Positions 22,140 to 60,795 of a DNA stretch of 64,000 nt are shown here, piece after piece. The stretch covers positions 744,001-808,000 of the forward strand of contig SAXG01000017.1 in assembly GCA_012932865.1 (NCBI GenBank), given 5' to 3'. This stretch comes from Amylostereum areolatum (Eukaryota > Basidiomycota > Agaricomycetes > Russulales > Stereaceae). The notes beneath the pieces are model-generated. The model did no database searches and was not told the origin of the DNA. It worked only from the letters and a program-made list of their open reading frames with translations. A program made the translations under genes and the position numbers. The first letter of the stretch is position 1; every line of letters starts with the position of its first letter.

Positions 22140-22750
22140 AGGGTCTGCGCAACAAGAAATGTGGTTCTGGCGAGGGTTCGTTCTCGTCGCAGGATGCCGG
22201 TATAATCACGCGGCTCCCATGCTTATATTCAGAACCCACCATGCAAAGTGACACGGTGGACGATGTGGGGATGTGAAAGAGAAAAAAATGTACGTGCCGT
22301 AGTCGCGGCTCACGCAGCCCCCATGCTCCCACTTAGGCGGCTGGCGCAGTGGAAAATAAAATAAACCAGGCGAGGACTCACCCATGGGTCACCGTACGCT
22401 TCAGGTCGTTTGCAGGCAGTGTGCGCGTGGTCGAAGGCCCTCTCGGGGTGTTGGCGCGGGGGCGGGGTGGCGGTCGCGATTGGGAGCGTCCCTTTTTAAA
22501 CAGCCCCGCAGTCCTGAGCCGATTCGTTCTCACGCCCCTGACCCGTTAACGCGCCTGTGTGCCAGATCCATTAACGTGTCGTGTCGCGCCGCCAGGTCCG
22601 TTCACACGTTCAATTTAATTCAACTTGCACCAGTCCTCACGCATGCCATGGGAAAACAACTCATGCTTGCACTCCATGATGTAAGTACGCATATATCAAC
22701 CCCCAAAGCCGAAAGTAACCAGCCAATGTTTCACCCCATGCCTCAAGGCC
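22140..22750. other. Intergenic with first GTTAAC-type repeats
   Basis: There is no supported gene. At 22538-22615 lie three copies of the same type of repeat as the larger left array (CCCGTTAACGCG, TCCATTAACGTG, TCCGTTCACACG), spaced about 25 bp. This could be an outer end of the giant element. Confidence 0.45.
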
Positions 22751-23641
22751 TCAAGCGTCGGCCTCTGGGAGCGTGTCCATGTACATCTCTGCGTCCCTCA
22801 ACTTCTCCTCCAAGTCCTCGACGCGCGCCTGCAGCTCCCGCACCTTCTTCGACAGCTCGCTGTTTTCCTCGCTCTTCTTGATGATGCGATCGTCGCGCCC
22901 CTTCATAGCCTTGCACTGGACGTCGAGGTCCACCTTGAGCTTCTGGATCGTGACACCTTGCTCCCGAACAACCTTGTTGAGCCTCGCGGTCTGGATTTCG
23001 CCGAACCTTTCTTTGACGTCTGCTTCTTCCAGCATTTGGAGCGCGGCCTGGCGCTTATTGGCGCCGGATGGTGAAGCCTGGGGTGAAGAGGCTGTCGCGA
23101 AAGGGCCGAGCGGTGGGTGGTGAGATGAGGCGGCCTCGGGCGCGTGCGTTGGAGAGGAGAAAGGGGTTACTCTGGCCGGCTGGGTCGCACCGTCCTCCAC
23201 TTCTCCGATCGGGCGCTTCCCTTGGGTGGTCGTGGACTTGTAGAGCAACCCCCGAGTGCGCTTGTCAATGGCTGGAAGGCCCTGCGCAGCCTGTGCTTTC
23301 ACCTGTTCTCTGTTCCAGCGCGGGTTCAGGTCCTCTTTGTTCCATTGGAGGATCACATCATCCGGCACTCCGACCCTGTCGCAGCGAGCCTCATACCTGG
23401 TGTCGTAGGTATCCTGCGGCACTGTGAACAGGTCAATACCACAGACCCTCTAGGAGTTAGGAGGCGGCGCACCGTATACACCGCAGTCGATCCACCCCTG
23501 CGTCCTATACTTCTTACACCCCAGCATCTCGCATCCCATTTTTTCCTCAAATCACACTTCGACTTTGGGTTGTACTCCTGCCTCGGGCGGGCACAAACAA
23601 TCCGGGAGGGGGGCGTGTTTCAAGGAGTTGGGGAAGGCCAT
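22751..23641 (-). CDS. Coiled-coil protein of unknown function
   Basis: No family recognised. The likely start is the ATG at 23641-23639 (MAFPNSLKHAPLPDCLCPPE), 57 bp downstream of a clear minus-strand TATA box (complement of 23698-23705). One or more short introns (GTGTGA donor after VQPKVE; acceptor before 23419) lead to the main exon 23419-22751. That exon has a Pro/Ser-rich middle and a C-terminal heptad region of ~75 residues (KVVREQGVTIQKLKVDLDV ... VRELQARVEDLEEKLRDAE), a parallel coiled coil. It lies in the left arm of the putative KDZ element, between two GTTAAC arrays. The exon structure upstream of 23419 is uncertain. Confidence 0.5.
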
Positions 23642-23696
23642 GGTGAGGGAAGAGGCGGAAGTTGGAGCGTGGGCGGAGGGGCGACGGGGTAAGGTA

Positions 23697-23706
23697 GATT
23701 ATATAC
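23697..23706 (-). promoter_or_regulatory. TATA box of the coiled-coil gene
   Basis: The minus strand reads GTATATAATC here, 57 bp upstream of the proposed ATG at 23641. This spacing supports the chosen start. Confidence 0.5.
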
Positions 23707-24099
23707 ACCTCTTCACGGTGAAGTCACCAATCAGCGCCATCGGCGATTTGAGAACGATATGCCAAAGACATCAGCATAGCACCGAGGCCCCTCGCCCACG
23801 CCCTGAAGCAACCCGAGTTACAGACCAAAGACGCACCACGAGGCCGGGGACCAGAATGTGCGAAACAGGTTTGGTGGGATGAACGGGCAGACCCACGCTG
23901 AGGCAAGCAACCGCCCGTGCACGGCGCCGCCAAAAGGCGGCACGATTGTGCACGACATCCGCCTCAAAGAGCGGAGAGGGAGCTGCGTGTGAAGGCAGAA
24001 AGACGCGCGCGGCCTGATCAATGCCATTACCTGAACCAGCACGTGCCCTTGTGTCACGTGATTGCCTCCATCGATCCGAGCCACTGTCAGAAATCTCGG

Positions 24100-24590
24100 G
24101 CCTTAACCGAATCTCGCCCCGCGATCCGTTAACGGATCTGGTCCTGAGATCCGTTAACGCGTCTTGGGGCGAGATCCGTTAACGTGTCTCGGTGCCAGGG
24201 CCTGGAGTAGCCGGCGGGCACAGCGAGATCCGTTAACGCGTCTTGATGCGCGATCCGTTAACACGTCTTGGGACCCGATCCATTAACGCGTCTCGGTGCC
24301 AGGGCCTGGAGTAGCCGGCGGGCACAGCGAGATCTGTTAACGCGTCTCGGTGTAAGGGCCGTTAACCTGTCTCGTAGCGCGTCCGTTAACCGTCCGTTAA
24401 CGCGTCTCGGTGCGCGACCGTTAACGCATCCTAGTGAGAGAACACATTAACGCGTCCCTCGTCGCACTGCTACCTGCCGCCGCGCCCAAGGGAGAAGTGA
24501 TAACTCGTCCACCACCGACGTCCGTTAACACACCTTTAGCTACCCGGGGGCGTTAACGCTTCCCAGAGGGACCCATTAACGTATTCTCTC
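24100..24590 (+). repeat. Left subterminal GTTAAC array
   Basis: About 15 irregularly spaced copies (mostly 22-28 bp apart) of [A/G]TCCGTTAACGCGTC with variants such as TCCATTAACG and TCTGTTAACG. A ~60-bp unit (24184-24245) is duplicated at 24288-24350. The asymmetric flanks of the palindromic core give the array a direction, opposite to that of the right array. Confidence 0.75.
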
Positions 24591-25303
24591 ACTTCAATGC
24601 GGCAACGCGCGCATCTAGCATCCCACCTGCGCACCAGGTTGACGCGGTTTCACACACCACCTTGTTCGAACTTGGGCGCAAAACACATATTCATTTGGAA
24701 TTTTTTCCCCCTACATTACAGCCGTGCAACTGTATTTGCCCATCTCACAATCTAGACTTCCTCTCTACCCCTACCTCTCGAAGTCAGTAGAAAGTCGTGC
24801 ACAAAGTAAGTGCACTCACCCTGATTCAGCAGATACCAGACCCTCTCAACAGACTCTCCATCAAACATCTGCACTGGGGCAGGGAGTTGCAGGCTAGGTG
24901 AGAACACCTGGTACCGCCGGGTGTGCACCACGAACGCGCAGGGCTGGCGCCCTCTGTCCCTGTTGGCGATGTCAGTCGACAGTCAATCCAGGAGCACGGG
25001 ACGACTTACCCAGGTTTGAGGCGCGTCATCGCTTCTCCCTGACGAACCTCACCTGCGACAATGGGGTCTTTTGGCATATTTAGGGGTGACCGGTGATGGT
25101 GATGAATGAGGATGGGCAAACTCGCCTCCAATTGGGGTTTTATATGCCAATGGAGACCCATGCACCAGCCGCGTCGGTCCCGTACGAGCGAGGAGCGGAG
25201 CGGAAGCGCGGCCCGAAGCCTGGGGTCAACTCCCCGCGGAACGTCGGGCCTCCTTCCCCGGGCGTACCCCTCTCTCCCTCTCCTCCTCATCTTCCTCAAG
25301 AAT
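24591..25303. other. Left-arm spacer, no gene seen
   Basis: About 700 bp between the left array and the coiled-coil gene. I see no supported frame. A TTTTATATG element at about 25137 lies some 160 bp ahead of the next ATG. Confidence 0.5.
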
Positions 25304-26110
25304 ATGTCGCCACCCGACCGCGAGATCCACCTCTTCAAGGAGATTCGCGGCCTCCAGTACGACTTGGAGAAGGCGCAGAGGAACATCCTCGGCCGCGCCA
25401 ACGACCACCAGGCCGCAGAGGTGCGTGAGCAGGCCGCGCTTGAAGCCCGGGACAACGCTGTAGACGAGGTCACTGCCTTGCGCGACGAGCTCAACCACGT
25501 CCTCACGAAGCACCAGGTCGAGGTCAACGAGCTTGTCCGCCAGCGAACGGAGGCGGACGCCGGCTGGAAAGTCGCGCGTCAAGAGAAGGAGGCCATGGCG
25601 CGCCAGTCGGACGACCATCGGCGGGACGCGGTCGCCCTGAGGAAGGACGTCCGCCATCTGGAACTGGACGCCCAGTTGTTGCGTGCGGACCTGGGCAAAA
25701 CCCTCCAGCACTTGTCGCAGGCCGAGCTGCACCTCGAGGCCGCTTGCGCTCGGGAGATAGAGTTGGAGGCGGAGATTGCCAGGCGCCCTGTGGACGCCAC
25801 CAGGTAAGTGGCGCTTCACTTCGCAGTGGGGGAGATTGGGGACTGAAGTCTAAGGATACAGGCCTGACCTTGCCAAGGATGAGGAGGTGAGCAACTGGGT
25901 GCGTTCCGATCCGAAGGGCAAGCTAACCTTTGGCAGGGCATGGATCGCCTGCCTCCGCTCGGGCTTCCAGCCACGTCGCCGCGTGGCAAAAAGAGGACAA
26001 CACCGGGCGACAACGGGAGCTCGGGTGAGAATGGGCGAGGTGGGGATGGGGAAGGTAGTGCAGCCAGGAAGCCGAGGTTGGAGGGCGGAGAGGAAGGGTG
26101 GTCGGAGTAG
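25304..26110 (+). CDS. Coiled-coil protein with basic, Gly-rich tail
   Basis: Function unknown. Start ATG 25304 (MSPPDREIHLFKEIRGLQ). Exons 25304-25803, 25862-25886, 25937-26110 keep frame to the TAG at 26108-26110. Residues ~10-160 are almost entirely helical heptads rich in Glu, Arg, Leu and Ala (DEVTALRDELNHVLTKHQ; HLELDAQLLRADLGKTLQH), a long coiled coil of the kind seen in structural or oligomerising factors. The last ~58 residues are Pro/Gly/Lys-rich (RGKKRTTPGDNGSSGENGRG). It lies at the left edge of the cargo region. With the gene at 22751-23641 it makes two coiled-coil proteins in the left arm. Confidence 0.6.
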
Positions 26111-26242
26111 ACGCGCTGTTATCCTCACGTACGCTCTGGTTGTTGAATTCGACAAATCTACCTGGCTTCATGAAGTTCGACCGCTTGGAAGTTTGACCAC
26201 CTCGAAGTCGCTCGTATTGCATACATCGGTTGCTTCACAGCG

Positions 26243-27075
26243 CTACTCTTCCCTTACAACACGCCCTCGAACCTCCGATATTCCCAGCCCCTGCAGCACG
26301 CTTGCCACCTCTTTAAGGTCCAGGACCCCCTTCCTCCACCCTTCCCAGTCATGGTACCTCTCTGTCCAATGCCGATCCGTCATCGCCTCCGCCCAGTAAT
26401 AAAGCAGGAAGGTTACATACAAGGCCGGAGCGGTCAAACCTGAACATTCGCGACCAGTCGAAGAACTTCAATGGTCGCACCATGAACGTGGAGTCGCAGG
26501 GGAGAGGCGATCGGTCGGCCGGTTGTTGTGATGCATAATACCCTTCAAAGAGGGCTTAGAAGCCGTCGCTGGGGCTGTTGAGGTCCAGCAGGGGGGGGAG
26601 CACGCATCGGCGCCGCTGCCAGTTGACTAAGAACCATGGCAGTGGTGCCCGTGGTAGGTCTCGATAGGTCTGTGGTTTCAGGGTCAGAATCTAAGGCCTC
26701 TGGAATTCCAGACGACGCACCTGGAACCCTTGAGCAGCGCACACGCCAAATATCATCTTCACAGCGCGCGCCCACTCCGCCTCGTAGCAGTCCGTAACTC
26801 CGTTTCCCAACAGCCGGTAGTAAAGCGCCCTCATCTCAACGCCAACTTTTCCTGTCCAGAAATTGGGTCGCATGCGAGGTAAGTTTGGGACGACGCGCAC
26901 GCTGCCCTGTGATAAACTGGTGGGAAAATCTTTGTACCCTGACCGGGGCGAGGCTCACCTTAGTCGGCAGCTCTAGGAGCACGTAGGCCAGAGGGAGAGA
27001 CTGGGAGGCAGCTCCAGAGGCGGCGGGCACCGTCTGGCCACTTAAATGAGTTGAGGAGGACCGGGTCTGTACCAT
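26243..27075 (-). pseudogene. Unrecognised multi-exon gene, probably broken
   Basis: Minus-strand blocks read like one protein: MVQTRSSSTHLSGQT with LAYVLLELPTK (from the ATG at 27075), then MRALYYRLLGNGVTDCYEAE and VKMIFGVCAAQGFQ, a GT-AG intron, TYRDLPRAPLPWFLVNWQ, and after an in-frame TAA (about 26562) the same frame continues ALFEGYYASQQPADR to DWSRMF. The C-terminal block is DRHWTERYHDWEGWRKG to the stop at 26243. The in-frame TAA suggests decay, unless it is spliced out. No domain is recognisable. Confidence 0.4.
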
Positions 27076-27314
27076 GACGGTGGTGGCTTGGCTTACGCGG
27101 ACGCACGCGGAAAGGCGCGCAAGTCCTTAACGCGCCCCACCCCCTCATTGATCTGTTAACGGATTAGTTAGTCTTTTCGCATGCTCCCCGACCCCAAACT
27201 CACCAGAAAAGCTATCCATTCCAGCCTCCGTACTCATCTTTAAAGGGAGAGATCATCCTTCAAAGCTGTGGGTTCGCAAGCAGACCTTCTAAGCAGCAAA
27301 TACACAATCTTATC

Positions 27315-28994
27315 ATGTGGTCGAGGGGCGACAAAGTTGTAAGCTTGGGTTTAGGACACCCTCACCCCTCCCCATCGCCGTCAAGTCTGCCAGCCCCCCC
27401 CCTCCTCCCCCTCCTCCTCCAACATGCTAACTCTGTTAACTAGGGAGGATCTGTGAGTCATACCCGCTGCCAAAATCGAATCGTCACTTACAGACATGCG
27501 TTAAGCAAAGAAATACCCGTTAACTCCCTCTCGGTACGAGCCCGCACTTCCACACCTTAGCCATGCTCAATACAGCGCCTTCAGGCAATACTCCGCGCCC
27601 ACTACAACGTCCGCAAGCTGCAGTCAGCCCCTCGCGACCTGTCCAACGCGAAGGCTCGGGTGACCAACGCGCGGATTACAGCGCACTGGGGATATGTCGA
27701 GTCTGGGTCTTACCCGCCAGGCGACGAACCACTCCCGGACGATCAAAAGCGCGTGGATGAGGTGCTGCGCGTGCTTCACCTCCAAGGTTTCCTCGACTTG
27801 CCTGCCTCCAGAGATCAGGCGCGTGCCCCCCCCCCCCCGTGTGCGGTGAAGGGAAAGGAATGACCTCCTGTTCCCTGCTTAAGCGCCACCGCGCGGCGAA
27901 GGTGACGTTGGCGGGACAAGCTGCTCCTCCAACCAGGCCGCACCTCCAGACCTCCCGCCGCCGACGGCATTCAATGGCGCTCCTGGCGAAAATGTCAGCA
28001 TGCTGGACCTTCCCGACGCGCACAGTGACGCGGAGCATGCTCACCCTGTCTAAAGCCTCGAGCCCCGACCATTTTCCCACTGACGTTGACATCATCATCC
28101 ACAACGGGCTTGATGGCGGGATCAGTACCATCGATCGATACCCCGCCTCGTCTCCAGATCTTGACCTACGGTTTGAAAAACTGTCCAACTTGCCCACCGT
28201 TAGCGCAAAGAAGGTTGTTGACGCATGGCTCCAGTACCAGCCATCTGTCAACGGTAAGGTCCCCAATCAGACCGCTGTGCACTGTTCTAAACGCGCCTTA
28301 GGTCCGCTGGAGCTCGGCTTCATGCTTCGCGCGGCGAACAACCTCAGGTGTCGACTCTTGGCGCGGCCCTGCATCGAGGACGTCGACTCCGACGCGGTGC
28401 AGGGAGTCCTGCTCGTACCATACTTGAATCCCTCCGGCGGCGCATGGGAGGTCAATCTGTACCTGGACAGGGTGAGCCGTTGTCTGGGTGACTTAATGCC
28501 CGCTGACCTTTCCTTTGCCCTAGCCCCAGCCGGAGCTGCCGCCGAGCGCGTCATCAGATACCCCGGAGCCCGAGGAAGAAGAAGAAACCCCGACCGGGAA
28601 CGCGATTGTTGCCTGGCTGATGGAGGAATACGCCAACGATGAAGTGGTGCAGCAGATCCGGTCCAATGCCAGTCGGCGCGGGCAGCCCATTCACGTCCTT
28701 CGTGAGTGGATCTGGAAGGTGGAGGGGCTTTTGGAGAAGTGCAAAGCCGGGTGGCGCGTCCCCGTCAGTGTGGATCACCCGGCCAGGCTCAAGCGCATCT
28801 TGAGAAAGCATCTGCAGGGCTTGCTAGGGAAGAGCGCGAGCTGGCTCCTCAATTGCGAAAAGGCCGCTGCATTGGTCGCCGAGCGCGGGGATTGGAATAG
28901 CGAGGTCAGGGGTTACCTCAATGACCCTGATGCTTCCAAAGTCTTCGGTATGCAAAGTTTAGCCGCCTATCTGGCTACTTTGACGCCACCTTAG
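27315..28994 (+). CDS. Unrecognised cargo protein
   Basis: Proposed start ATG 27315 (MWSRGDKV), exon 27315-27338, a 9-nt exon 27444-27452 (Gly-Gly-Ser), then a long exon from 27585 (AILRAHYNVRKLQ ... VLRVLHLQGFLDL). The middle is uncertain because two frames are open between 27840 and 28060. It resumes clearly with SPDLDLRFEKLSN and VSAKKVVDAWLQYQPSV, a 48-nt intron, GPLELGFMLRAANNLRCRLL, another intron (GTGAGCCG to CCCTAG), an acidic EPEEEEETP stretch and a helical C-terminus (EWIWKVEGLLEKC; LRKHLQGLLGKS) ending at TAG 28992-28994. No known domain. The 27.1-27.3 kb upstream region carries further GTTAAC repeats. Confidence 0.5.
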
Positions 28995-29101
28995 AATTAG
29001 CCTAACTCAATTGCAAATGTTCCTAATTACCTTCTTTGCTCGCTCTTTGCCCGGAAGATCTCACTCATGTAAATACCAATCTCGTGCCTTGCAAACTCAG
29101 G

Positions 29102-31776
29102 TCACTGATTGCTAGTTACAAGCTCCGGGTGGGAATAGTGCGTGGTGGTCGGGGCAGCGCAGGGGCGCGTTCTCCTCGTAGGTGCTCGGCCCCCATCTCC
29201 GCTAAGGACAATCGTAAGCAGGAGGCCAAAGCAAGGATAACCTGACTTACCATCGCTTACGGTTTGGAGTGTTTTACTCCAGGCGATGACCTTCGGGTGG
29301 GCGAGGACCTTGCGGGCGTCGAGCCCAACTACCTGCAGGCCTTCCAGCGAGGCCGCGCGAGAGAGGGCCACGTAACTTTGACCTGGATGGGAGTCATCAT
29401 TAGCGGGCTGCACCTGTCGAGGCTTGGTTTCCTCACCCTTCTCAAACACCTTGCGCAAGTCGACGCGCACGCGCTGGATAGTTTGCCCTTGGCTCTTGTG
29501 GATGGATATTGCCCACGCCAGAATGAGAGGAATCTGGGGGTACTGGTAAGCGACTGCCCAAAGGCCAGCCACGTCGTCGATGCTCACCTGAAGTCGCCGC
29601 GCGATCACCTTTCTCTCCGCGTCCTCGACCTTGAACTCATCCTGAGTGACGAGGACGCGAATTTTGCCTTCGTGTGTGGAGAACTCCACCCAGGGAAACC
29701 CATCGCTGTCTCCCAGTCGCAAGCCGTCGCCAGGGCTGGAAGACGGGAAATTCTCCTTTTCCTCGACCACTTCGTCGCCACTCTCCCCTGCCTGGCCCGC
29801 CGCCATCGGCCGCCCGTCTGCGTCAAACTCCACCTCCCTTAACACGCCAAAAGAGCGACCCCCTTGTGCCGCGTAAAACCCTCGAACCACGCCAACCGCC
29901 CCGTTCACCAGCCCCCTCCCCTCGTCTACATTGCGCACCAGCATGACCTGCGCCCCCGTCTTGAGGTCCAGGACGCTGACTGCAGGCGTGGCGTCCAACA
30001 GTTGCTCGCGTTTCTCCGGTGGGACAGTGCCGGAGTCCTGAGCTCGAAACCGCACGATGGGTTTGGCGATTTTGGACAGTCGAGAGGCGTTGGCGCTGAC
30101 GACCTCACGCCGGAGAGGGAAGAGGTCGGTCGGCGGGAAGTTTGCCAGTGGGGAAGGGGGGAGAGGTCTTGAGAGTCGTTGGAAGGCATGGATCGTCGCA
30201 GGCGTCAGAACGCCTTGCCGGAGCTCTTGAAGCATTTGAACGAATTCTGGTTGGGAGGGACTTAGGGCAGGAAGCGAAGATGGAGAAGAGGGTAGGCTTA
30301 CTGCCGTCTTTTTGCCTATACACCTGCGTCAAAACCAGAGTCACCTCCACGGACTTGTGCCAGGAGTCACTCTCAAAAGCGAACAGCGTTGTCACGGATC
30401 GCTCCATTTCTCTCTTCGTTTGCAGACCTCGTACACGCGACGCGTCACGGCACATGACTTTCCCTTGCATCACATGCTTCAACGACGTCATTGCCCGGAC
30501 TTCCGAGCGGGGTTCCGCATCCTTATCTATGACATCACTGCTCCGGACCTTCGTCCTCCGCCCCATGACTCCTTTCCTATTGTTTCCCCCGCTCGCACCA
30601 CTATCGCATCGCATCGCACCATCGTTCCCACTTGTATATAAGGACAGTGTTTCTCTTCCCTTTTCCCTAGACTGTCCATCTCGTCATACGGTACTGTAGC
30701 GCACGTTGCACTACCCTAGACCCCGGCACTCTCGAATCTATTTTCTTCTCGCTCCTCCCATCGTCGCGACTTAGGCGGATCATCGGTCTCATAAACTGCG
30801 TTTCTGACAAGCGTGGCCTGACCCTTTTGGGTGATGGGAGGCAGCTGGAAGAAGTTGCCCGTGACGATGAGCTGAGGGCAGCGCGGTGGGTGAACAACGG
30901 TGTCGGGTCGCACAGGTCCAGGACGGCTTACTTGAATACCGCCAAACGGTTTTGGGCTGGGGTCTCGCAGCCTCACTGCTAAAGCGCCTAGGGTGTCGAA
31001 CAAGCGTCCGTCGACCATGGACACTGAGGACGCGGCGGTCAGTTGTGCGCAGCGTAGTTCGACGGAGGGCAATACCTTCGTCTATAATCAGGACCTTGAC
31101 CGCCCTCCAGCGTTGCAAGGCCGGCTTCGATCGGCGGACGTACCGAGCCAGTTTGTCGAGGCTGTCCACGCTCGGGCTTATGCCTCCCCAGGAGTGCAGA
31201 GTCATGCCTGTGCGCGCAAGGGTGTTCAGGAGGGACGGCTGGACCCAAGGAGAGAATACTGACCTCCTATGTTCGATGCAGCCATCCCTGTGCTCGCTGT
31301 CACCGCGACGGCCTCGGGTTGGGAGGAATGCCGCCGCCGCAGCGCATTGACAATCGCCTTGAGAAGTAACGACTTTCCCGTCCCTGAAAATCCAGACTGG
31401 TTAGCCACGAGCAGAGGTGCGTGAGGGAGGACCACGTGCCTGCAGACCCGGTGAAAAATACATTCTTTCCCTCCTGAAGCACCATTGCCAAAATTTTCCT
31501 CTGCTCCTCGCCGAGAACCACCTCTGTCGTCCCAGCCTTGAAACCTCACGCGATATCCTCTATGCCCGCCGTGCGCGCAACGCTGACCTTCGGCGAGAAG
31601 AAATGGTCAATGGTTAAGCGAGGCTTTTTGGAAGAGGAGGAGGAGGAGGAAGAAGGCGCGTGGCCTTGAGCCTTGCGCTTAGGGACTGGGGGTGTCATCG
31701 GTCGAGGGTGGCGGTCTCGCAAGGCGCTCCTGGCAAGGACTTGGGCATGGCTTGTCTGAACACGGTCACATGACAC
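29102..31776 (-). pseudogene. PIF1-type DNA helicase interrupted by a solo LTR
   Basis: Superfamily 1B 5'-3' helicase. Order on the minus strand: basic Ser-rich N-terminus (MTPPVPKRKAQGH, ATG at 31698) with a PIP-box-like LTIDHFF; VFFTGSA-GTGKS Walker A split by an intron; MTLHSWGGI; LIIDE-VSMVDG Walker B, also split; GNFFQLPPI (motif III, usually GDFFQLPP); then the solo LTR 30390-30809; then VYRQKD, EFVQMLQELR, GAQVMLVRNVDEGRGLVNGAVG, ISIHKSQGQTI and QSYVALSRAASL. The C-terminus ends at 29102, or at 29112 if a last GTAAGC intron is used. Removing the LTR and one TSD copy restores the frame. An in-frame TGA at 31546-31548 could lie inside a 51-nt intron with a weak GTCAGC donor. There is no Rep domain, so it is not a Helitron protein. 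Confidence 0.8.
30390..30809 (+). mobile_element. Solo LTR of the chromovirus family A
   Basis: 420 bp, TGTCAC...CTGACA, same length as and ~98% identical by eye to the LTRs at 37418-37837 and 44093-44512. It is flanked by a perfect 5-bp duplication AGCGT (30385-30389 and 30810-30814). It arose by recombination between the LTRs of a full element that had inserted into the PIF1 gene. Confidence 0.95.
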
Positions 31777-31858
31777 GTTGCCTCGCCTGCATTCAAGCGC
31801 TGAAGCTCACACATCCATCGGGAAGGTAATGCTAAGCATGCATGATGTAATTACAGCA

Positions 31859-33426
31859 CTAAATGTGACGGCGTTTGGCCGCGGCTTCGTTGAGGGCAAA
31901 GTCCACCTCCGGCGCCGCGCATTTTTTACCCTTCTCATACAGTGCCTTGCCCGCAGAAAGACGAGGTGGGGAGGCCATGAGTTTCAGCTCCTCCCAGAGG
32001 TCAGGGCAATAGGTGCAGCCCTCGACGCGGCCAACAACCGTGGTCTCCTCTTCTTCCAACCAAACCCGATCGCCCACACCAATGAAAGACCCCCACTCCA
32101 AGCGTCCTGGCAGCCACTTCTGCCAGCGACTGGCAAGAGAGAGTTCGAACCTCTTCATGATGCGGGAATGTTGTGAGAGGACCAAGGGTCGGTCAACGTC
32201 GACGGCGTAGTCTTTGAGGGCAGGCCCTGGGATCTGAAGGAGATTGCATGAGAACTGCACCGCCGTGGAGGTGGAGGAATGGCAGACGCACCCCGTTATG
32301 GTGGAAAATCCAGATGCATATGTCCTTGGTTAAACTCACGGGTTCTTCTTCTTGTTCTTCGTCCTGCGTTGGCCGATGGGTCAAAAATCGAACATCGGGT
32401 AAATAAAAACCACTTGCGTCATCAATGGAGATGGGTGAGGAACCCCCAGCCGATGTGCTCGCATACCCGCGGTGGGTTTCAACGAACTGATCCAGGGAGA
32501 AGAGGTCAGAACATCCGCTTGAGAGGTTGGAAAAGACACGACGCACAAAGTTAGGCTTGGGAATTTTTTTGGGAAGCTCATCTTCCGAAGAGTCACTGAT
32601 CTCATGCTGCGATGGACGAGTCAATATTCAATGGTGGGTGGGTAGGTGAAATAGAGCTCATGACGAGTTCGGGCCCTGGGCCGGACTGCATTTGACGTAT
32701 GCTGAGCGCCCGCGCCTTGTCATGTCTGGGCTGGCGGGCCTTGCGAGATGGGAGAATCGCCCACGCCTGTTTCCGAAGTTCAGAAAGCCTGCGAGACCTT
32801 CTGCTGCAGAGCGCACTCACCGGCGTCTGTCTCTGGGGAGGGCTTGGTGGCTCAAGCTTGATGTGCGTCGCCGAGGTGCGCCGTGAGGGATGGGCAATCG
32901 GCGAGCTGGGCGGCGGGGAGCTTGCGTCGGACAACAAGTATATCGACTGTGAGGAAGAGGCGAAAGTGGCCGACACTGTTCGCTGGGGACGGCGTGGGGG
33001 CTGACTGAGCTCGCAGCGGGTCATAAAAAGGTCATGGAAGCGGCTCACCTTGCCCTCCGCCACCCCAACCTCGTTTCTCAGCTTCCACAACAACCTTACC
33101 CGCTCCGCGGCACTGGTCACGAAGCGGATGCCTTCTATGCCCTCAGTGAGGTATTTGGGAACGTCTGGCTGCACTGACTGGCGGGTGGTTTCACAACGGG
33201 AACTTTCGTCACACTAGCGGGTAGAGGGTGAGAGAGGGAGACGGTGAGGGGGGGGGGGGGTGATACACACCATGGAGAGCCAGCGACCTGCGATCCCTTT
33301 TCGGTAAGCAAGCTGCAGCTTGACAGCACCGCGACACCCGGGACAGGGCAAGGAGGGAGGGGGTGGCTTTCGACTTTCAGACCCCAGAGCGCAAGCAGCC
33401 TTGAGTTCCTTTGTGTAATTAGCCAT
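31859..33426 (-). CDS. Cargo protein with GRF-like zinc finger
   Basis: Start at the ATG 33426-33424 (MANYTKELKAACALG). Exon 33426-33271, a 57-nt intron, then an exon from 33213. Across this splice the spacing CPGC, then RKGIAGRWLSMC, then five residues and a Cys resembles a GRF zinc finger (CxxC ... GRxFxxC ... C), a ssDNA-binding module in Ape2, Topo III and Neil3. The rest is unrecognised: a helical VTSAAERVRLLWKLRNE block, a Ser/Pro-rich linker, a likely weak GTCATG-CGCAG intron, an acidic ISDSSEDELPKK, and a C-terminal basic region with FIGVGDRVWLEEEETTVVG, a small-barrel-like strand pair. It ends at 31859, 83 bp upstream of the helicase ORF on the same strand. Confidence 0.5.
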
Positions 33427-44160: not shown

Positions 44161-44512
44161 CTTTCCCTTGCATCACATGCTTCAACGACGTCATTGCCCG
44201 GACTTCTGAGCGGGGTTCCGCATCCTTATCTATGACATCACTGCTCCGGACCTTCGTCCTCCACCCCATGACTCCTTTCCTATTGTTCCCCCCGCTCGCA
44301 CCGCTATCGCATCGCATCGCACCATCGTTCCCACTTGTATATAAGGACAGTGTTTCTCTTCCCTTTTCCCTAGACTGTCCATCTCGTCATACGGTACTGT
44401 AGCGCACGTTGCACTACCCTAGACCCCGACACTCTCGAATCTATTTTCTTCTCGCTCCTCTCATCGTCGCGACTTAGGCGGTTCATCGGTCTCATAAACT
44501 GCGTTTCTGACA
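44093..44512 (+). repeat. 3' LTR of chromovirus A
   Basis: Matches the 5' LTR over 420 bp with one visible difference at about 44206. The pol stop codon falls inside it. Confidence 0.95.
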
Positions 44513-46237
44513 GGGAGGGCGTTTACCAAGGGGGGAGGCAGCGGCAGCAGGGCTGGACAGATTTGAGGTGGGCAATCGGAGGATGTCTCTGAGAGAGGAT
44601 TTGGGTTGCACACGGCCTTGAGGATCGAGGTCGAGCTGAGTAAAGCTGCCTTCCAGGACCCACTTCCACTGCTGGGCAGTCCATTTATGCGCCCCTCCTT
44701 CTTGTTGTCCCGTGACCGTGAAAAGAACCCACTCGCGCACGCGCAACCAGTTGTGGATCCAACTCATGTCGTCCTGGCGTATGCGCATGAAGAGGGAGGG
44801 GGGAGGAAGGGCGTATGTGGACGCCCGCTGAAGCTTGGGGTTCTTGAGCGCCGGGATGGAAAGCCATGCGTCCTGCCACACGCGGTCCAGCACGGGCGCC
44901 CATTGCGGTTGGTCTGGAAGCTCGGGACGGAAGGTACGCCGTCCTGGGGTCGCAATCGGAGGTGTCGTGGGGGCAGTCTCGGTGGACGAGGAGGCGGTGG
45001 GTGCTGGCGCCTCAGATACCTCTTCTATGGCGGGGCGAGAGGGGGCAACGGAGGGGAGGTTGGCCAAACTGTGTCGACGAAGCTGATCACGAAGGGACGC
45101 TATGGAGAAGTCGAGGTTGACGCTGCCCAGCCAGGTCGGCGCGTGCACGGAGATCTCACCGATGACGGTCGTGCGGGCGGTGCTGAATACGGTCGCCGCT
45201 TTCCAGGGTTGGGCCAAGGGCGAGGCGGTGAACTTGGTGGCCGTGGTGAGCGTGTCTCGGGGTCTGACCCACCAAACAGGAATCCCAAGGGAGTACAGGC
45301 GCTCGACGACGGAAAGCTGCGACGTGATGGCGCCGCGGAGGGAATACGTGGGATAGCAGGGCAGGGAGGGCTCGTGCATGCTGTCGTGCTCCCACACGGG
45401 CTTCAGGTAGCGTTGGTAATCCGCCCATGCTACGATGTCGATGAGGAGGCGCTGGATCTCCCGGAACCACATGATGGCATCGACGAGTGAGAGCAAGCCG
45501 TCCAATAGCTTGTTCACCGTGCGACTCACGCGAACGATTTGTTGATAAACATAGCGGCGAGAGGGGTCGTCTGATTGTGGATAGAGGGCCTGCGCATACT
45601 GAAGTGCCCACAATGACTTGTCGGAGACCATGGAGTCGATTTTTGTTGAGAGCGCCTTGTCGACGCGGCCGAGAGGTCCGGCGGCGGTGTCTAGGACCTT
45701 TGCCCACCATTGAGGCATGAAATCGCAGAACAAGAAGTCGACGTCTTCCTCGAAATTGATGTGGGAGGCGAAGGGCTTGCGATAAGTGGGGGTGGGGGTG
45801 GGGGTGAGGGGAAGGGGCGCGCGGGGGTGAGCCTGGTGGGGAATGCCATGGCGCACTGCAGGATGCAAAGGTGCGACAACCAAGTGGGGCTCTTTGATAT
45901 CACATATCTGGGGCCATTTGGTGTACTCGTGAACGCCAAGCATGCCATCGCTGAAGTATGTGAAGATGTCCCCGGGGGCATGCCACGGCAGCTCGGGGAG
46001 CCAGAACACGTTGGGCGAGGTGATGTAGAACAGACCGCGGGAGTGGGGCGCCTCGCCGATCATGAAGCAATTGGTCGCTTGGAAGCGAACCTTCGCGGGA
46101 TCGAACTTGGGGAACGACTCGGATTGCAAAACGGTGAGGTTGGCGAGGTTCAGGGGCTCGGGCGGGGAGAGGTTCAGGGACTGGGCCTCACTGAGGAGGG
46201 CTTCAGCGACGGTGACATCGAGCGAGCAAAAAGACAT

Positions 46238-47688
46238 ACATGGACGGGTCAGAGGTGCTGCCGAATGCTGGCTGGGGATTTGTGGTCGACGTGGCTGCAG
46301 AGTGCGAGGACATGGTATCGATGTTGAGGGCTGGGAGCGTGGTACGAGTCGGACAATGAGCGAGGTTGGCCGGAGATCATATGGGTATGGATATACGCAC
46401 AGAATCCGTGAAGGTGATCTGATATTTGGTGGGAAGGACGGGAGGAGGCAGGCCGGAGAGCGGGGGAGCTGTACAGGAGGAAAGAGATCATTTTCTGCGC
46501 GAGCAGAAGGGGGCGAGGGGTCGGGGGTCGGGGGGAGAGTGTGATATACGCACAAGAAGGGCCCGGGGGAGGCCTGGAAAAGGCGGCAGGAGTGTCCAGG
46601 TCGAGGATGTGCCACCACATGAACGCGCCACTGCTAAAAGCAGTAGATTGCAGTCTGAGTTTCTGCGCGAGCAGAAGGTGCACAAAGGTCCCGGGCAGGA
46701 GAGCAGGAGGGGGATATGGTTGTAGGAACCGCGTGGGGGACTGTGGAACGTCTGTGGGTAAGGGCGTAATTGCCAAAGGGGACGCCCAAGGCGACGCGCG
46801 TGGGTTGGAATTATGGGTCAGAGCTTTTGGCGCTCAAAACAGTGCACGGTGGTCTGCATTTGAATTAATTAGGTTTTAGATATCATTAAGTAATACCCCG
46901 GATCAGTACCTGTTAGGACGGTCACGACGGCAGGACACGAGGGGTATGCGGTTGGTTCGCGTATCAAACCGGAAGTCGCGACAAAGGGGGGGGGGAGACG
47001 GGACCAAGACCGTCGCATACAATACAGACAATATAGACTGGCTGTCATGGTGTTGTCTGTTCATTTCCCCGGGTGCGCCCGTCCTCCAATCCTCAAGGCC
47101 GTGCCCGGCCTGTTTTCAAGTCGGCTCGTCTTTTCTGCCTTTGTGCAGAAGCTTGTCAGGTTCGCACTCCGTCTTTGTCACGGGTGTCCTGACTCGACCG
47201 TCCGATTCCAGGGCCCAACAATGGGCTTTCTCTCATGGACGCGCGGATGCCAAATATCGGCGGACGATCTGGTGCGTGGAGATTTACCTTAGTGCACTTG
47301 GATCTCATCGGAAAGTGCGCAAAGGCAATGACATCACATTTTCATTGCTCACGGAGGCTAGCAAAACGTGTAGGGCGGAGGTGAGGAAGGTGGAGGGCTA
47401 CGTTGGAGGATTGGGAGGTAAGTACTTAAGTAACGAGGTCTGGAATTTGGGGCAGGCTGACCAAATACCTTTTAGACGGAAAGCGGCGGGGTCAGGGGGG
47501 ATCGTTTGAGGTTATGTTGGGGGTGCGTGGAGTAGTGTCAAATAGTGAGACATTAGCAACGCGAGACGCGCGTCTGGAAAGTGGACCTGGCTATGGATGT
47601 GCAATTCAAATGATGAGGTTGAGGTGATCTTGTGAAGTGCCGTCGCCGTTAAGTATCAACGCCGTGGGGCCTAGATGCGCTGACTCTC
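46238..47688. other. Spacer between divergent cargo gene and KDZ transposase
   Basis: This is the likely shared promoter region. It contains a repeated word TTCTGCGCGAGCAGAAGG at 46493 and 46659 (itself an inverted repeat). A 187-codon frame at 46946-47509 has no recognisable content and I do not accept it as a gene. Confidence 0.5.
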
Positions 47689-50600
47689 ATGGCGTCAAAC
47701 GACAAGTCTCCCGTCAAGCCAGGAAGATCTCCCGGCGTCTTTGCGGCCGGGTCCATGGCGCTGAACACTCAGCAACTGCCTGGGACGCCTCGACAGGCCA
47801 GGGTGGGGGGCCCGCAGACCCCTGTGACAACTTATTCTCGGTCGGAGAGAATATGGATCACGCTGACTCAACCTCTGAAAGCTCCATCCTTCGAGGGCTG
47901 CGTCACGCCCAAGGGACACGCCCCTGTTCAGACCATGTCGGGGGGGCTGCGTCAGGGCCGGGGGAGCACGCCGCATAAGGTCAAGGCGGGTGGTGGATCG
48001 GTGCGCGGAGGATGGACCACAAACCCTTTCACGGGTCCTCATTCCGCAAAGGACGATGCGGCGGCTGCGGCGAGGGAGGCGAAGGCGGCAGCGAAAGAAG
48101 CAGTGAAGGCAGAAGCGGAAGCAGAGAAAGACGTGGCGGCGCAGGCGCGGCATAAGGCATTGGGGAAGGACGGGCCTGCACCCAAGAGGGCAAGGGTGAA
48201 CAACACAATAGTGAGTTTTGCTTGGCCATGGTGGAACGCGCGCACATGCTTAGGTTGGTTGGCAGGCTCCGTCCAAGCGCATGAATCAATTCCTGAGCAC
48301 TCAAGCGGGCCCGGCGCATGACACATTGCTGGCGTGAGAGGCGGGGCCAATGCTGAGCATGTGCTCCATCTGCAAGAAGAGCGAGGGTACCGAGGCCATG
48401 CCCCTCTATCGATGCGTGGAGTGTTTTTTCTCCAAGCCTGCATGTGGGACGTGTACGATGAATGACCACCGTCGCATGCCATTTCATTGGATCGAGGTGT
48501 GGGACAAAGATACTGGATTTTGGACACGCACGGAGTTGGACAAGCTGAACATGGTGGTATACACCGGGCACGACCAGATGCGTTGCTTGCTCAGTTTGAG
48601 ACCGCCAAGGGAGACGTCGATATGCACTGACGAGGGGTTTCAGACCGCACACATAAGCTATTGCTATTGCCTGCAGGAGGGGACCGGCGTCCAGGAGCCC
48701 GAGGCGTTGCAATTGCTCAGGATCGGTCTGTTCCCTGGGTCATGGGAGAAACCTCAGACGGTGTTCTGCACGCGCCTGCTCGATAAGTTCCTCCTCCTGT
48801 CCTGCCAGTCTCAAACCGCTTGCCAAGACTACGTCAAGTATCTGGAACGGTTGAGCGAAGGCGTCTTGTTCACCAAAGTGATGGTGAGTTACCTATCGGC
48901 GAGGGCTCGATCTAGGTACTGACCGCGTTGGTGTTAGAATCGATATCGGGAATGGTTGACTAGCAACCGAGAACACTCTTACCTGACGATGGTCAGGCAT
49001 TCGGGAACGAGGCCGGGGACCCACCTTGGGGCTGGTAAGCTGGCAATCCTGTGCCCAGCTTGTCCTCAGCCGGGCTTAAACATGGAGCTGGATTGGATGG
49101 ATCGTCCCGAGGAGGAGTGGTATTGGTCTCCTACTGTGTGGGCAAATGCCACTTGGCTGACACTTAACACTTTCAGGTACTTGGACGCGTTGTTTTACAC
49201 TGTGGATGGAAATTACCAGCAAGATCAAAAGGTCAAGCCCTTGGACCCGAACGACGTCGCTTTAACGGAGGGCAGCGCCTACTTTGCAAACATGGAGGAC
49301 TTTACGGAGTATCAGAAGACGTTGGGCCCGATGGAGCCAGAGGTGAGTTGGTCACTGCGGATGCATTGGTCGACGCTGACGCACGCGTTCAGCCTTCAAG
49401 CTGTCAACCTTTCCGCGCCATGGGGCACGGGGTATGGTGGGGGAGCGTCTCCGGGACCCTGGGCTTGTCCTGCGCACGCCATATGTTCGTCCTACCAGCA
49501 GGAGGCGTGGATCTCCAGAAAGGAGAAAGGTAACTATTGTACTCCGATGTGTGGACATTTTCGTTGATGGAATGGACTCGTGCAGGTTTGTTAACGTCGA
49601 CTTCGCGCTGGCCTCAGGGCTGCAGCCGTGGATGACCTTGTCGTTGCACATATTCGCATATGACATCGGGTGCCAATACTGCATTGATTTCGAGAAGCGG
49701 ATGCTCGAGTTGAAAAAGGCGGTCGCCGAGTGCAAATCCCTGGCAAATCTGGATTGGCCAAAGATTATCCGGGTTATCGGGAAGTTTCACCTCCCGGGGC
49801 ACAAGCCGGGGTGCAGGTATAATTTCTCTTGCAACTTCTTACCTGGATTGGGGCGCACAGATGGGGAAGGGCAAGAGCGGATTTGGGCAACGCTGAACGC
49901 GCTCGGGGCTAGCACACGGGAGATGACTTCGGGTCACCGCCACGACAGAATCAATGACCACCATGGCGACATGAATTGGCGTAGGATGGTGGGAGTGGGT
50001 GAGCATCGCAAGTGATGGTCCAATATAGTTTTTACTGATGTTTCGTAGGAAAGGCGTGCGTGAGGAAGCACAAGGAGGCTGTGGAACAAATTGGCGTCGT
50101 GAACGCGGTGGTGGCGGATGTCGAGGGCGGGTTGGAGGCTGAGACGGTGGTGAAATGGAGAGATGAGGAGAAGGAGTGGCTCAGCAAGGTTACGGACTTC
50201 AAGAACCACAAAGGGCTGAACAATCCGTACGAGCCGAGCACCAGCGCAACGAAAGGTGAGCTGAGGCGCATGCTTTCGGGGCGATTGGACTGACCAATGG
50301 CCAGGGTTCACTCAAAAGGATGCCTTGGAAATGTTGAGCGAGTCAGCCAGTCGTAAGGATGTGACGGCGGGATTGGCAGGAACAATATCAGAGGGGATCA
50401 CTTTGGAGGAGGCTAGGTACGTGGCATCCTTGGCGACGCTACGACAGCTCAAAGTGTTCTGCGCAGGGCACAGCTGCTGAAGAAGCTTGAGAATGACCCT
50501 AAAGCCAACACAAAAGCGACGAAGGAGGCAAAGAAGAACTGGTGGCGACGATTCAAAGACTGGACGGAAATGCGGCGTTTATTCTTGGACGTCATGAAGG

Positions 50601-51589
50601 TGGCGGCGTCTGAGTTGGCTGTGGAAAATGTGGCGGATGGTGGTTACGAGGAGGTGGAGGATAAGCTGGAGGAGGGATACGGGGACGGGAAGGAAGCAAC
50701 GGGCCAGACGCGGAAGAGGAGGCAGGAGGACGACGGTACAAATCGGGATGACGGGGTACGCGGCGCTCTGTGGAAGGATGTGGCGGAAGCGACAGTGGAG
50801 CTTCCTTGCCATTGGGGGGAGGAACTCAAAGCAGCAGCGGCGGCGAACGGCACGGTGGACGCAGAACGGATGCTGTGGGAGGGTGAAGCCAACGAGGCTC
50901 TGGATGACGTTCGGGTCTAACTGATCACATCTTACGCCTTGCTCAGGGGAGCGCGCAACGTCTCCGGTGTCAAGAAGAACTTGCGCGAGTTTAGCTGCAG
51001 ACCGATATCGTTGCGCAAGGCTGGCTCTTCTGCGCCTCGGCATGAAGCCAGAAGACCAGAAGTATCGGCCCTTGGCGCGAGAGGACGTTGTGGCATTTGC
51101 AGTGGCATCAGACAAGGACACACTCGGGGAGGGGAAGACCAGCCCTTCCTGGGTCTGGAGCGACTTCACCTTTGTTCATAACCAAGACGATGGCAAAGTG
51201 AAGAAGTACTGCGGGGAAAGTACGTGCTGTGTGGACCAAACTCAGTCCTACATGCTCATGCCGGCTTCTTTATTAGTGCTGAAGGTACACTGGTTTCGGA
51301 CGCGGGCACTGCAGGCCCGGTGGACCGAGGAAAAGGCCTTGCTAGAGCGGGAGATGCGCCATATCGTGCACTTCTTTCGCGCAAAGGTAGAACAATGGTA
51401 TGACCTGGCGAAAGAATCTGTAGTGGCCAACAGGGCCGGCGAGGCGGCGTATCGTCGAAAGTAAGCTCTGAGTACCACACTGGTTGTGCCCCGGCTGACG
51501 CCCGCACTAGACAAAGTCATAACTATCGGAGTCTTCTGGAAGAGTGTTTAAAGGATTTCGCGGGTGTGGTTGATGTGTCGGACTGGTAA
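47689..51589 (+). CDS. KDZ-superfamily transposase with CxC2 cysteine cluster
   Basis: Catalyses movement of large DNA transposons in basidiomycetes. Start ATG 47689; exons 47689-48210, 48341-48883, 48938 onward and several more, ending at TAA 51587-51589; roughly 1000 aa. The N-terminus is basic and Ala/Lys-rich. The CxC2-type cluster is CSICKKSEG...YRCVEC...CGTC with a following HWIEVW. The KDZ catalytic core shows YTVDGNYQQDQK, EGSAYFANMEDFTEYQK, GLSCARHMFVLPAGGVDLQ, AYDIGCQYCIDFEKRM, GKFHLPGH, ERIWATLNALGASTREM and GHRHDRINDHHGDMNW. Probable acidic catalytic residues are the D in VDGNY, the D in YDIGCQ and the E in GQERIW (inference). The C-terminal helical part ends VVDVSDW. No stop or frameshift is evident in the core. 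It lies 360 bp inside the right GTTAAC array. The splice near 50920 is uncertain. Confidence 0.88.
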
Positions 51590-51949
51590 GGGTGGTCAGG
51601 GAGTGGGTGCTGGGTGTATGACATTAGAAATATTATTACTCATATGGATGCGTGTGGCTTTCGCGCGGTTTGGATTGGACTCCGGACCATGGCCCCTGCT
51701 CTATGGCGGCGAGCACGGCACACTCAACCACGCAAAGGTATGCCATGGGCTCTGTATACAGGGGGGTTTGGCGTAGCGCGCTCAACGGATTGCCTTCACA
51801 GAATGGATGTATTATTATGGGGAACAAAAAGTACACAGTGGGAGGGTGGGGTGACAATGAGGGACGACTCTTTTCGAAGACACCGGATTCACGTGAGTGT
51901 CAACTCGCGGCGGTCTGGCCTATGGATATTGGATGATTGTTGTCTTATC

Positions 51950-52140
51950 CGCTTGAACAGACTTCTCGCGCAAATGCGTTAACGGGTTTCTTGGGGGAAC
52001 GCGTTAACGGATTTCTTGCGCGGCGTGAACAGACTTCTCACGCAGAGGCGTTAATGGGCTTCTTGCGGACGCGTTAACGGGTTTCTTGGGCGGACGCGTT
52101 AACGGATTCCTCGCGCGGACACGTTAACGGTGTCCAAGCG
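51950..52140 (-). repeat. Right subterminal GTTAAC array
   Basis: About seven copies of GCGTTAACGG[A/G]T followed by TTCTTG-like text, spaced about 25 bp; read on the minus strand they match the left array motif. The last copy sits in a short inverted repeat GGACAC-GTTAACG-GTGTCC (52115-52133), a candidate for the element edge. Confidence 0.75.
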
Positions 52141-60784: not shown

Positions 60785-60795
60785 GGGGGCTGACG

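What the first reader, a model, noticed from the sequence alone, without database searches (positions are those of the whole stretch)
22530..52140. A giant KDZ-type transposon carrying a PIF1 helicase and unknown cargo
Direction-bearing GTTAAC-centred repeat arrays lie in inverted orientation at 24100-24590 and 51950-52140. They enclose a complete-looking KDZ transposase next to the right array, a stand-alone PIF1-type helicase, a GRF-like zinc-finger protein, two coiled-coil proteins and four unrecognised genes. The combination looks like a ~20-22 kb mobile unit (before later insertions) with its own DNA-processing genes. KDZ elements with cargo are known in basidiomycetes; this gene set, with helicase plus ssDNA-binding-type finger, is to my knowledge not a described arrangement.
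Basis: partly seen in the sequence, partly recalled or inferred. Interest (0 to 1): 0.88.

Follow-up and report, generated by a model that had tools for sequence, protein, structure and literature searches.

The report
Giant KDZ transposon with captured helicase
A fungal genome carries many copies of a roughly 30-kb jumping gene of the KDZ kind that seems to have taken a DNA helicase gene from its host; giant KDZ elements are known, but this helicase-bearing gene set looks new.

Summary
The mobile unit is real but larger than reported. Other copies, target duplications and an empty site put its ends at 18115 and 54892, not 22530-52140. It has imperfect TIRs of about 75 bp and 7-bp TSDs (CACTTAC); the empty site on C137 matches the joined flanks at 242 of 248 bases. 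The GTTAAC arrays are real but internal; all 98 array places found with two unit-specific patterns lie in copies or part-copies of this element. KDZ transposase (CxC2 + KDZ) and PIF1 are confirmed, but this copy is damaged: PIF1 has a stop and a solo LTR, gene B holds a 7.1-kb Gypsy element, the transposase has a stop and a 35-bp deletion. PIF1 is present in 8 of 12 assessable copies; the 4 without it have large internal deletions. Its frame is intact in 1 of 4 copies read. A diverged second family (C176) keeps KDZ, B, C, E, PIF1 and an F-box gene. A tree puts both element PIF1s as sisters beside a PIF1 of the same genome, so one capture is likely. Giant KDZ elements with extra genes are known; a captured PIF1 was not met in seven open-access searches. 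Likely role, inferred: PIF1 helps re-copy the long element after excision.

The parts
18115..54892 (+). whole giant KDZ element as it stands in the window (36,778 bp; about 29.3 kb without the Gypsy element, the solo LTR and their 5-bp duplications)
   Evidence: shared ends in other copies and empty site on C137
18108..18114 (.). left target site duplication CACTTAC
54893..54899 (.). right target site duplication CACTTAC
18115..18189 (+). left imperfect terminal inverted repeat, about 75 bp
   Evidence: pairwise alignment of the ends
54819..54892 (-). right imperfect terminal inverted repeat
20703..21558 (-). gene K, possibly F-box-like (weak, E 0.15, below cut-off)
   Evidence: ORFs
22754..23449 (-). 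gene CC1, coiled-coil-like C-terminal half
24123..24590 (+). left GTTAAC array
   Evidence: left-type units also in C2, C20, C30, C120, C121, C141 and C142
25106..25804 (+). gene CC2, coiled-coil-like ORF
27761..28991 (+). gene G, unknown, overlapping ORFs
   Evidence: no Pfam match
29116..31698 (-). PIF1 helicase gene, nine exons; in this copy a TGA at codon 52 (31546-31548) and a solo LTR in exon 5; 574 aa without a stop in a C142 copy (L042)
30390..30809 (+). solo LTR, 420 bp, 5-bp TSD, inside PIF1 exon 5; absent at this site in the C142 copy L042 and the C2 copy L069
31862..32627 (-). gene E, unknown, part of it conserved in the C176 family (40%)
32605..33426 (-). gene D, CPGC...GRW...C...C candidate zinc finger; not found in C176 by tblastn
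   Evidence: no Pfam match
35085..36104 (-). gene C, unknown, conserved pieces (37-38%); similar sequence at the end of Amylostereum model P0002 (by eye)
36768..37417 (-). gene B, C-terminal part, cut off by the Gypsy insertion
37418..44512 (+). Gypsy LTR retrotransposon with chromodomain, nested in gene B, 5-bp TSD; absent at this site in the C141 copy
44495..46234 (-). gene B, main part (the last 18 bases of the ORF lie in the Gypsy LTR); relatives in Amylostereum chailletii at 48% and 42%; no Pfam match for this ORF or those relatives
48350..51464 (+). KDZ transposase gene, CxC2 + KDZ exons (first exon(s) upstream not settled); TAA at 50918-50920 and 35-bp deletion at 50991/50992 in this copy
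51951..52130 (-). right GTTAAC array, inverted with respect to the left one, of varying length between copies
52392..54329 (+). F-box-like gene, 646 codons, relative in the C176 family at 53-59% identity

Best explanation
This is a giant KDZ-superfamily DNA transposon of an agaricomycete fungus; the unit without nested insertions is about 30 kb. Shown: TIRs, 7-bp target duplications, many copies, an empty site, and in three sibling copies a transposase open through the seven exons that I could model. Shown by conservation: PIF1, genes B, C and E and an F-box gene are kept with KDZ in a second, diverged family. Shown by tree: the element PIF1 was probably taken once from a host PIF1 paralog. 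Inferred: the KDZ enzyme cuts the element out and inserts it elsewhere, and the element-borne PIF1 helps polymerase delta with the long repair synthesis (migrating D-loop, as in break-induced replication) that re-copies about 30 kb from a sister chromatid or another copy into the donor gap, so that the element multiplies. On that view the 16-kb copies without PIF1, with a one-base overlap at the junction, come from repair that stopped early. What B-E, the coiled-coil genes and the F-box protein do is not known. The GTTAAC arrays lie upstream of the F-box gene and between CC1 and CC2 and may be shared regulatory sites (guess). The window copy is damaged and could move only with proteins from elsewhere. 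Odds: anatomy about 0.95, single capture about 0.8, repair role about 0.25; the figure below is for the whole.
For: Ends: alignments of five other copies stop at window 54892-54893 and five others line up at the left TIR. TSDs match in 3 of 7 copies: window CACTTAC, C150 GAGGTCC, C48 CACAACA. Empty site on C137, 242/248 identities, no gap, one CACTTAC. 13 KDZ loci. PIF1 in 8 of 12 assessable copies. Gene B at 12 of the 13 loci. Second family C176: tblastn pieces of F-box 53-59%, PIF1 about 38-68%, E 40%, C 37-38%, KDZ about 34-75%; B 44%. PIF1 is of cellular type: 358 bits to solved PIF1, 53 to Helraiser. Tree: element PIF1s sisters 100/93, with C126 of the same genome 99/97, next Peniophora 95/84. 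N-terminal R/K-x-T-I-x-x-F-F, similar to a PCNA-binding box (consensus recalled), in both element PIF1s, C126 and 19 of 41 database rows, 0 of the 8 rows that I labelled canonical; only the first 120 residues were scanned. Synonymous share of PIF1 codon differences in six copy pairs 42-64% against 25.5% for random changes (small counts, pairs not independent). Deletion junction 23970|45326 with one shared base in C127 and C99. PIF1 with PCNA in break-induced replication: passages of PMC7073672 and PMC11014909.
Against: No assay of expression, movement or helicase activity. PIF1 is intact in only 1 of 4 copies read: window TGA at codon 52 plus LTR, C141 the same TGA plus one extra base in exon 6, C2:369-399 kb indels in exons 2, 5, 6, 7 and 8. 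The C176 PIF1 frame was not checked. 4 of 7 copies read at both ends have unlike flanks (C99, C127, C141, C2:369-399 kb), and the left end was not found in the stretches searched for the C2:958-kb copy (L054) and a C142 copy (L045). The repair role rests on yeast PIF1 and on anatomy only. C99, C127 and C48 share one left flank, so the deletion form is not shown to have arisen more than once. Gene models C, D, E and G are incomplete; D, CC1, CC2 and G were not found in C176. The C126 PIF1 lacks its last part and its gene neighbourhood was not read. C121 has PIF1, a left array and a piece of B but no KDZ match in a cut list.
Confidence: 0.55

Rival explanations
1. Ordinary giant KDZ element in which PIF1 and the other genes are passengers without a role for the element.
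For: Family-1 copies are young (pieces 94-98% alike), PIF1 is broken in 3 of 4 copies read and the transposase in 5 of 8; [quoted passage not shown]
Against: The set persists in a second family at about 34-75% amino-acid identity per piece, B occurs in Amylostereum chailletii, and PIF1 differences between copies are richer in synonymous changes than random ones.
Confidence: 0.3
2. The cargo block (about 23971-45325, with PIF1, B-E and the left array) is a separate mobile element that inserted into a smaller KDZ element of about 16 kb.
For: Three copies (C127, C99, C48) lack this block, and C48 has matching TSDs.
Against: No TSD at the block edges in the window (one shared base only) and no inverted repeat pairing them among those listed. 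The junction cuts gene B, which is open and longer in other copies. B, PIF1 and KDZ are also together in C176.
Confidence: 0.05
3. PIF1 is the helicase of a Helitron that inserted in the KDZ element.
For: Helitrons carry PIF1-family helicases; this genome has PIF1 matches in very long ORFs that are probably Helitrons (not checked for Rep).
Against: The gene is a nine-exon, 574-aa stand-alone PIF1, near to cellular PIF1 and far from Helraiser, in the same gene order in two families.
Confidence: 0.02
4. The region is a segmental (for example subtelomeric) duplication spread by recombination, with a KDZ gene inside by chance.
For: 4 of 7 copies have unlike flanks, and flank words are shared across contigs.
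Against: Common precise ends, TIRs, 3 matching TSD pairs and an empty site with one TSD.
Confidence: 0.03

Closest known systems
Kyakuja-1_LB and Kyakuja-2_LB, KDZ elements with TET/JBP genes in Laccaria (PMC12730594; outline, passages and figure legends seen)
   Same: KDZ-type element in Agaricomycotina with an extra gene; 7-bp TSDs.
   Different: Reported with CA..TG termini and no TIRs, and with TET/JBP; here GTAG..ACTC termini, imperfect TIRs of about 75 bp, and PIF1. No TET/JBP among the ORFs scanned (not a full scan).
Giant KDZ elements of Ectocarpus (up to 30.3 kb) and a 31.7-kb one seen to move in Chlamydomonas (told in PMC12477816; passages seen)
   Same: Size class, KDZ transposase, nested insertions, extra genes.
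   Different: The passages seen name no PIF1 in them; other hosts.
KDZ1-KDZ3 of Cryptococcus (about 9-11 kb; PMC12810828, passages seen)
   Same: KDZ transposase with a CxC cysteine cluster, TIRs.
   Different: TIRs of 139-241 bp, TSDs of 4-8 bp, CxC1 instead of CxC2, no large gene set in the passages seen.
KDZ-type transposons of Pleurotus preceded by CxC2 (PMC7641404, passages seen)
   Same: CxC2 in front of KDZ.
   Different: No large cargo in the passages seen.
Starship elements (PMC13066641 passages and search listings seen)
   Same: Giant cargo-bearing fungal elements.
   Different: Defined by a tyrosine-recombinase captain; here a KDZ transposase. A captain gene was not searched for.
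Helitrons (PMC6431247 passages seen)
   Same: Carry a helicase; the PIF1 kinship of it is recalled and seen as a weak Helraiser match.
   Different: Helitron helicase is fused to Rep; here a stand-alone PIF1 in an element with TIRs and TSDs.

Membership tests
KDZ superfamily | transposase with the KDZ domain (PF18758) | tested here: met
   E 4.8e-32, 111.9 bits, cut-off 26.6
KDZ superfamily | CxC cysteine cluster in front of KDZ | tested here: met
   CxC2 PF18803, E 1.2e-19
KDZ superfamily | terminal inverted repeats and target site duplication | tested here: met
   imperfect TIRs; 7-bp TSD in 3 of 7 copies; empty site
Zisupton subgroup | 8-bp TSD (PMC12730594) | tested here: not met
   7-bp TSDs in window, C150 and C48
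Kyakuja subgroup | 7-bp TSD (PMC12730594) | tested here: met
Kyakuja subgroup | CA..TG termini without TIR, as reported for the two Laccaria families | tested here: not met
   GTAG..ACTC ends with imperfect TIRs; whether this holds for every Kyakuja is not known to me
Kyakuja subgroup | place in the KDZ transposase tree | not tested
   no reference transposase set was at hand
Helitron | Rep (HUH) domain fused to the helicase, no TSD | tested here: not met
   574-aa PIF1 model has no such part; 7-bp TSD present
Starship | tyrosine-recombinase captain gene | not tested
   no scan for the captain family was made
PIF1 helicase family (for the cargo gene) | PIF1 helicase core | tested here: met
   358 bits to a solved PIF1; Pif1_2B domain

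The most novel reading that the evidence does not exclude
A distinct clade of giant KDZ transposons, in Russulales-like fungi, that took over a host PIF1 and keeps it with otherwise unknown genes (B, C, E and an F-box gene) as its own DNA-synthesis and repair module, so that a 30-kb cut-and-paste element can be re-copied at the donor site and multiply.
Probability: 0.25. Interest if true: 0.82.

Novelty: new variant of a known kind. Interest (0 to 1): 0.6.

Why it matters
How very large cut-and-paste elements survive excision and multiply is little understood. A KDZ lineage that took over a cellular PIF1 and carried it through the split of two families would be a natural case of a DNA transposon with its own repair helicase. 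Copies with PIF1, deletion copies without it, and a host paralog exist side by side in one genome, so the idea can be tested.

Tried and rejected
Rejected: arrays as element ends (6 of 7 other loci run past the right array; L007 breaks off earlier). Rejected: cargo block as a separate insertion. Rejected: complete transposase in the window; my first spliced model used a false 64-bp intron at 50883-50946 that bridged the stop and the deletion; a copy (L004) and C176 read straight through there (frames of 8 copies). One search skipped the gapped exon 1 and one search counted only new stops in the other copies, so both missed the TGA at codon 52; searches show it in the window and C141. The rows for PIF1 are not used: 'e6-9' was in the wrong phase and the ORF 29105-30328 runs through two introns. 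Wrong counts for other copies (two bases cut off the first exon) were replaced. The first end alignment mixed orientations and was replaced.

Led nowhere: structure of gene B (mean pLDDT 33.5), so no fold search was made; home-made gene finder; homologues of B beyond two Amylostereum proteins (in one search only the 7990 candidates sharing most words were scored); Pfam for P0001, P0002, C, D, E and G pieces. Iyer et al. 2014, which defined KDZ, was not held and is known to me only through other papers.
Full report
Where it lies. The species was not identified. PIF1 relatives in the same clade are Peniophora, Russula, Lactarius and Hericium, and gene B relatives are from Amylostereum, so a member of the Russulales is likely (inference).

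The observation. GTTAAC occurs 28 times in the window against 7.71 expected. Two arrays with a period of about 25 bp lie at 24123-24590 and 51951-52130, in opposite orientation. Two GTTAAC sites at 25-bp spacing occur at 120 places in the genome against 6 for the reversed control; only the first 50 were listed, all in copies of this element. With patterns for each array's own unit, the right type has 67 places on 11 contigs (control 0), all in KDZ-bearing copies, and the left type 31 places on 8 contigs (control 0): 28 in KDZ-bearing copies, 1 in the C30 copy cut off by the contig end, 2 in the C121 part-copy. The arrays vary in length; the right one spans about 445 bp at C2:961797-962242.

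The real ends. 13 loci carry the KDZ region: C76, C141, C2 twice, C142 twice, C20, C100, C99, C48, C127, C120 and C150; C120 and the C2:393-kb locus are split and C150 is partial. Of 7 other loci compared beyond the transposase, 6 run past the right array and one (C20) breaks off at 51698. Alignments of C100, C120, C20, C150 and C127 stop at window 54892-54893. Left ends of C99, C127, C48, C150 and C30 line up with window 18115. The ends are imperfect inverted repeats over about 75 bp. The window copy is flanked by CACTTAC on both sides, C150 by GAGGTCC, C48 by CACAACA. Of 7 copies with both ends read on one contig, these 3 match and 4 do not (C99, C127, C141, C2:369-399 kb). Several flank words recur: CACAACA left of C99, C127 and C48; AGCTGAA left of C141 and right of C127; GCATGCG right of C99 and of one C142 copy; ATACCAG left of C30 and right of C2:399368. 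This looks like recombination between copies or joins between haplotypes; I did not test which. No left end was found in the stretches fetched for the C2:958-kb copy (L054) and one C142 copy (L045). The window element sits in a repeat; a copy of that repeat on C137 (L068) matches the predicted empty site, left flank plus one CACTTAC plus right flank, at 242 of 248 aligned bases without a gap; the outermost 67 of the 315 query bases did not align there.

Insertions and damage in the window copy. A Gypsy element with chromodomain occupies 37418-44512 and a solo LTR 30390-30809, each with a 5-bp duplication; C141 lacks the first and one C142 copy (L042) the second at the same site. The element is 36,778 bp, about 29.3 kb without these. 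The C2:369132-399368 copy is 30,237 bp and carries window 23704-34257 with small gaps and without the solo LTR. In the window gene B is cut by the Gypsy element; PIF1 has a TGA at codon 52 and the LTR in exon 5; the transposase has an in-frame TAA at 50918-50920 and a 35-bp deletion at 50991/50992. Over the seven exons that I could model, the transposase is open in 3 of 8 copies read (C141, C2:958 kb, C100), has one stop in C20, and is broken in the window, both C142 copies and C99. The first exon(s) are not settled.

Genes. KDZ with CxC2. PIF1: in L042 nine exons with introns of 49-60 bp, the first with a GC donor, give 574 aa without a stop. Of 4 copies read, that is the only intact one: the window and C141 share the TGA at codon 52, C141 also has an extra base in exon 6, and the C2:369-399 kb copy has indels in exons 2, 5, 6, 7 and 8, which may or may not be assembly errors. 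Gene B, about 800 aa, has no Pfam match in its relatives or pieces; two Amylostereum chailletii proteins match at 48 and 42%. P0002 of that species runs on into sequence that by eye resembles gene C, so B next to C may hold in another species. Genes C, D, E, G, CC1, CC2 and K are partial models. The F-box gene has an F-box-like match at 4.1e-8.

Is PIF1 part of the element? C100 ends at a contig edge before PIF1 and cannot be judged. PIF1 sequence is present in 8 of the other 12 loci: window, C141, C20, C120, both C142 copies and both C2 copies; for C20, C120 and C2:958 kb this rests on one exon match at the fitting place and strand, and the C2:393-kb locus was not in the list. C127 and C99 lack window 23971-45325 with the same junction, one shared base and no TSD; C48 has the same alignment limits. 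C150 lacks a larger stretch. The junction cuts gene B, so the short form is best read as a deletion. Gene B is found at 12 of the 13 loci, not at C150:198-217 kb, and also at C176, C150:1237-1256 kb and, in part, C121. C121 has PIF1, a left array, a left-end-like stretch and a piece of B but no KDZ match in the list, which was cut.

A second family. C176:52-92 kb (L048-L051) has a KDZ gene at 68% DNA identity. With window ORFs as queries tblastn finds an F-box gene (53-59%), PIF1 (about 38-68% per piece), E (40%), C (37-38%), the C-terminal part of B (44-54%) and KDZ (about 34-75% per piece); the main part of B is 44% identical. PIF1, E, C and B are on one strand in the window's order and KDZ on the other; the F-box gene lies on the other side of PIF1. 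D, CC1, CC2 and G gave no match, and the ends were not found. In C176 B reads on in one frame across the place where the window has the Gypsy element. Whether the C176 PIF1 frame is open was not checked.

Where PIF1 came from. In a tree of 44 PIF1 proteins (3 from this genome and 41 that I chose from the 120 listed database hits) the two element PIF1s are sisters (100/93), then C126 of the same genome (99/97), then Peniophora (95/84), in a clade with Hericium, Russula, Lactarius and two metagenome rows (100/97). Another PIF1 of the genome (C117) is nearest to canonical-type rows by summed blastx scores. Branches: C126 0.17, element PIF1s 0.66 and 0.49. This fits one capture from a host paralog and faster change since. 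The C126 and C176 rows are incomplete. A motif like a PCNA-binding box with Gln replaced (consensus recalled) is in the first 120 residues of both element PIF1s, C126 and 19 of 41 database rows, in 0 of the 8 rows labelled canonical.

Selection. Over all nine PIF1 exons the six pairs of the four copies differ by (synonymous/nonsynonymous codons) 8/10, 6/8, 7/4, 9/10, 10/8 and 5/6; random changes would be 25.5% synonymous, and the pairs have 42-64%. This suggests past constraint, but the counts are small, the pairs are not independent, and 3 of the 4 copies are broken. Other cargo ORFs gave no clear signal.

Mechanism. Shown: insertion signature, copies, shared gene set. Inferred: the KDZ enzyme makes the cuts. 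Inferred, about 0.25: PIF1 aids the repair synthesis that restores the element in the donor gap. Passages of PMC7073672 place yeast Pif1 at migrating D-loops in break-induced replication and say that its binding to PCNA stimulates polymerase delta; passages of PMC11014909 say that PCNA and RPA contacts of Pif1 are needed there. A 30-kb gap is long, and an internal deletion with a one-base overlap is what an unfinished repair could leave. Other roles are open.

Literature. Seven searches bear on novelty: 16 of 16 papers listed; 30 of 2,643; 15 of 3,284; 16 of 16; 14 of 14; 20 of 21; 15 of 144. In what I saw of the papers opened there (PMC12730594: outline, passages, legends; PMC12810828, PMC13066641, PMC7641404, PMC12477816, PMC6431247: passages) no KDZ element with PIF1 is described. 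The library is open-access only and Iyer et al. 2014 was not held. [quoted passage not shown]

Verdict. A real giant KDZ transposon, rightly suspected, wrongly bounded, and damaged in this copy. The new point is a captured cellular PIF1 within a gene set that is shared by two diverged families.

Noticed in passing
window 57891-64000: Another repeat begins at 57890/57891; C176 carries the same 6.1 kb at 99.3%, and its edge meets KDZ-element sequence on C20, C120 and C127. The ORF at 60700-63999 reads like a Gypsy polyprotein by eye.
   Followed up: partly
G000:C150:1237021-1255824: Pieces of gene B lie here with no family-1 KDZ match close by in the lists; possibly a third family or remnants.
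   Followed up: no
P0018, P0019, P0032 (Cytospora, Diaporthe): Ascomycete PIF1s nest near Phanerochaete among Polyporales in the tree, which may mean transfer from basidiomycetes.
   Followed up: no
genome G000: 155 KDZ-domain matches in this genome, exon pieces counted apart, so KDZ elements are abundant.
   Followed up: no
window 22541-22590 and 27151-27532: Minor GTTAAC clusters lie upstream of genes K and G, as the main arrays lie upstream of the F-box gene and between CC1 and CC2; a shared promoter element is possible. The 40 kb of C176 read hold one GTTAAC.
   Followed up: partly
element flanks on C99, C127, C48, C141, C142, C2 and C30: Flanking 7-mers are shared between copies on different contigs, a sign of recombination between copies or of haplotype joins.
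   Followed up: partly
window 31546-31548 and the C141 copy: The window and C141 copies share the same CGA-to-TGA difference from the C142 copy in PIF1, so they may descend from one broken copy or have exchanged sequence.
   Followed up: no
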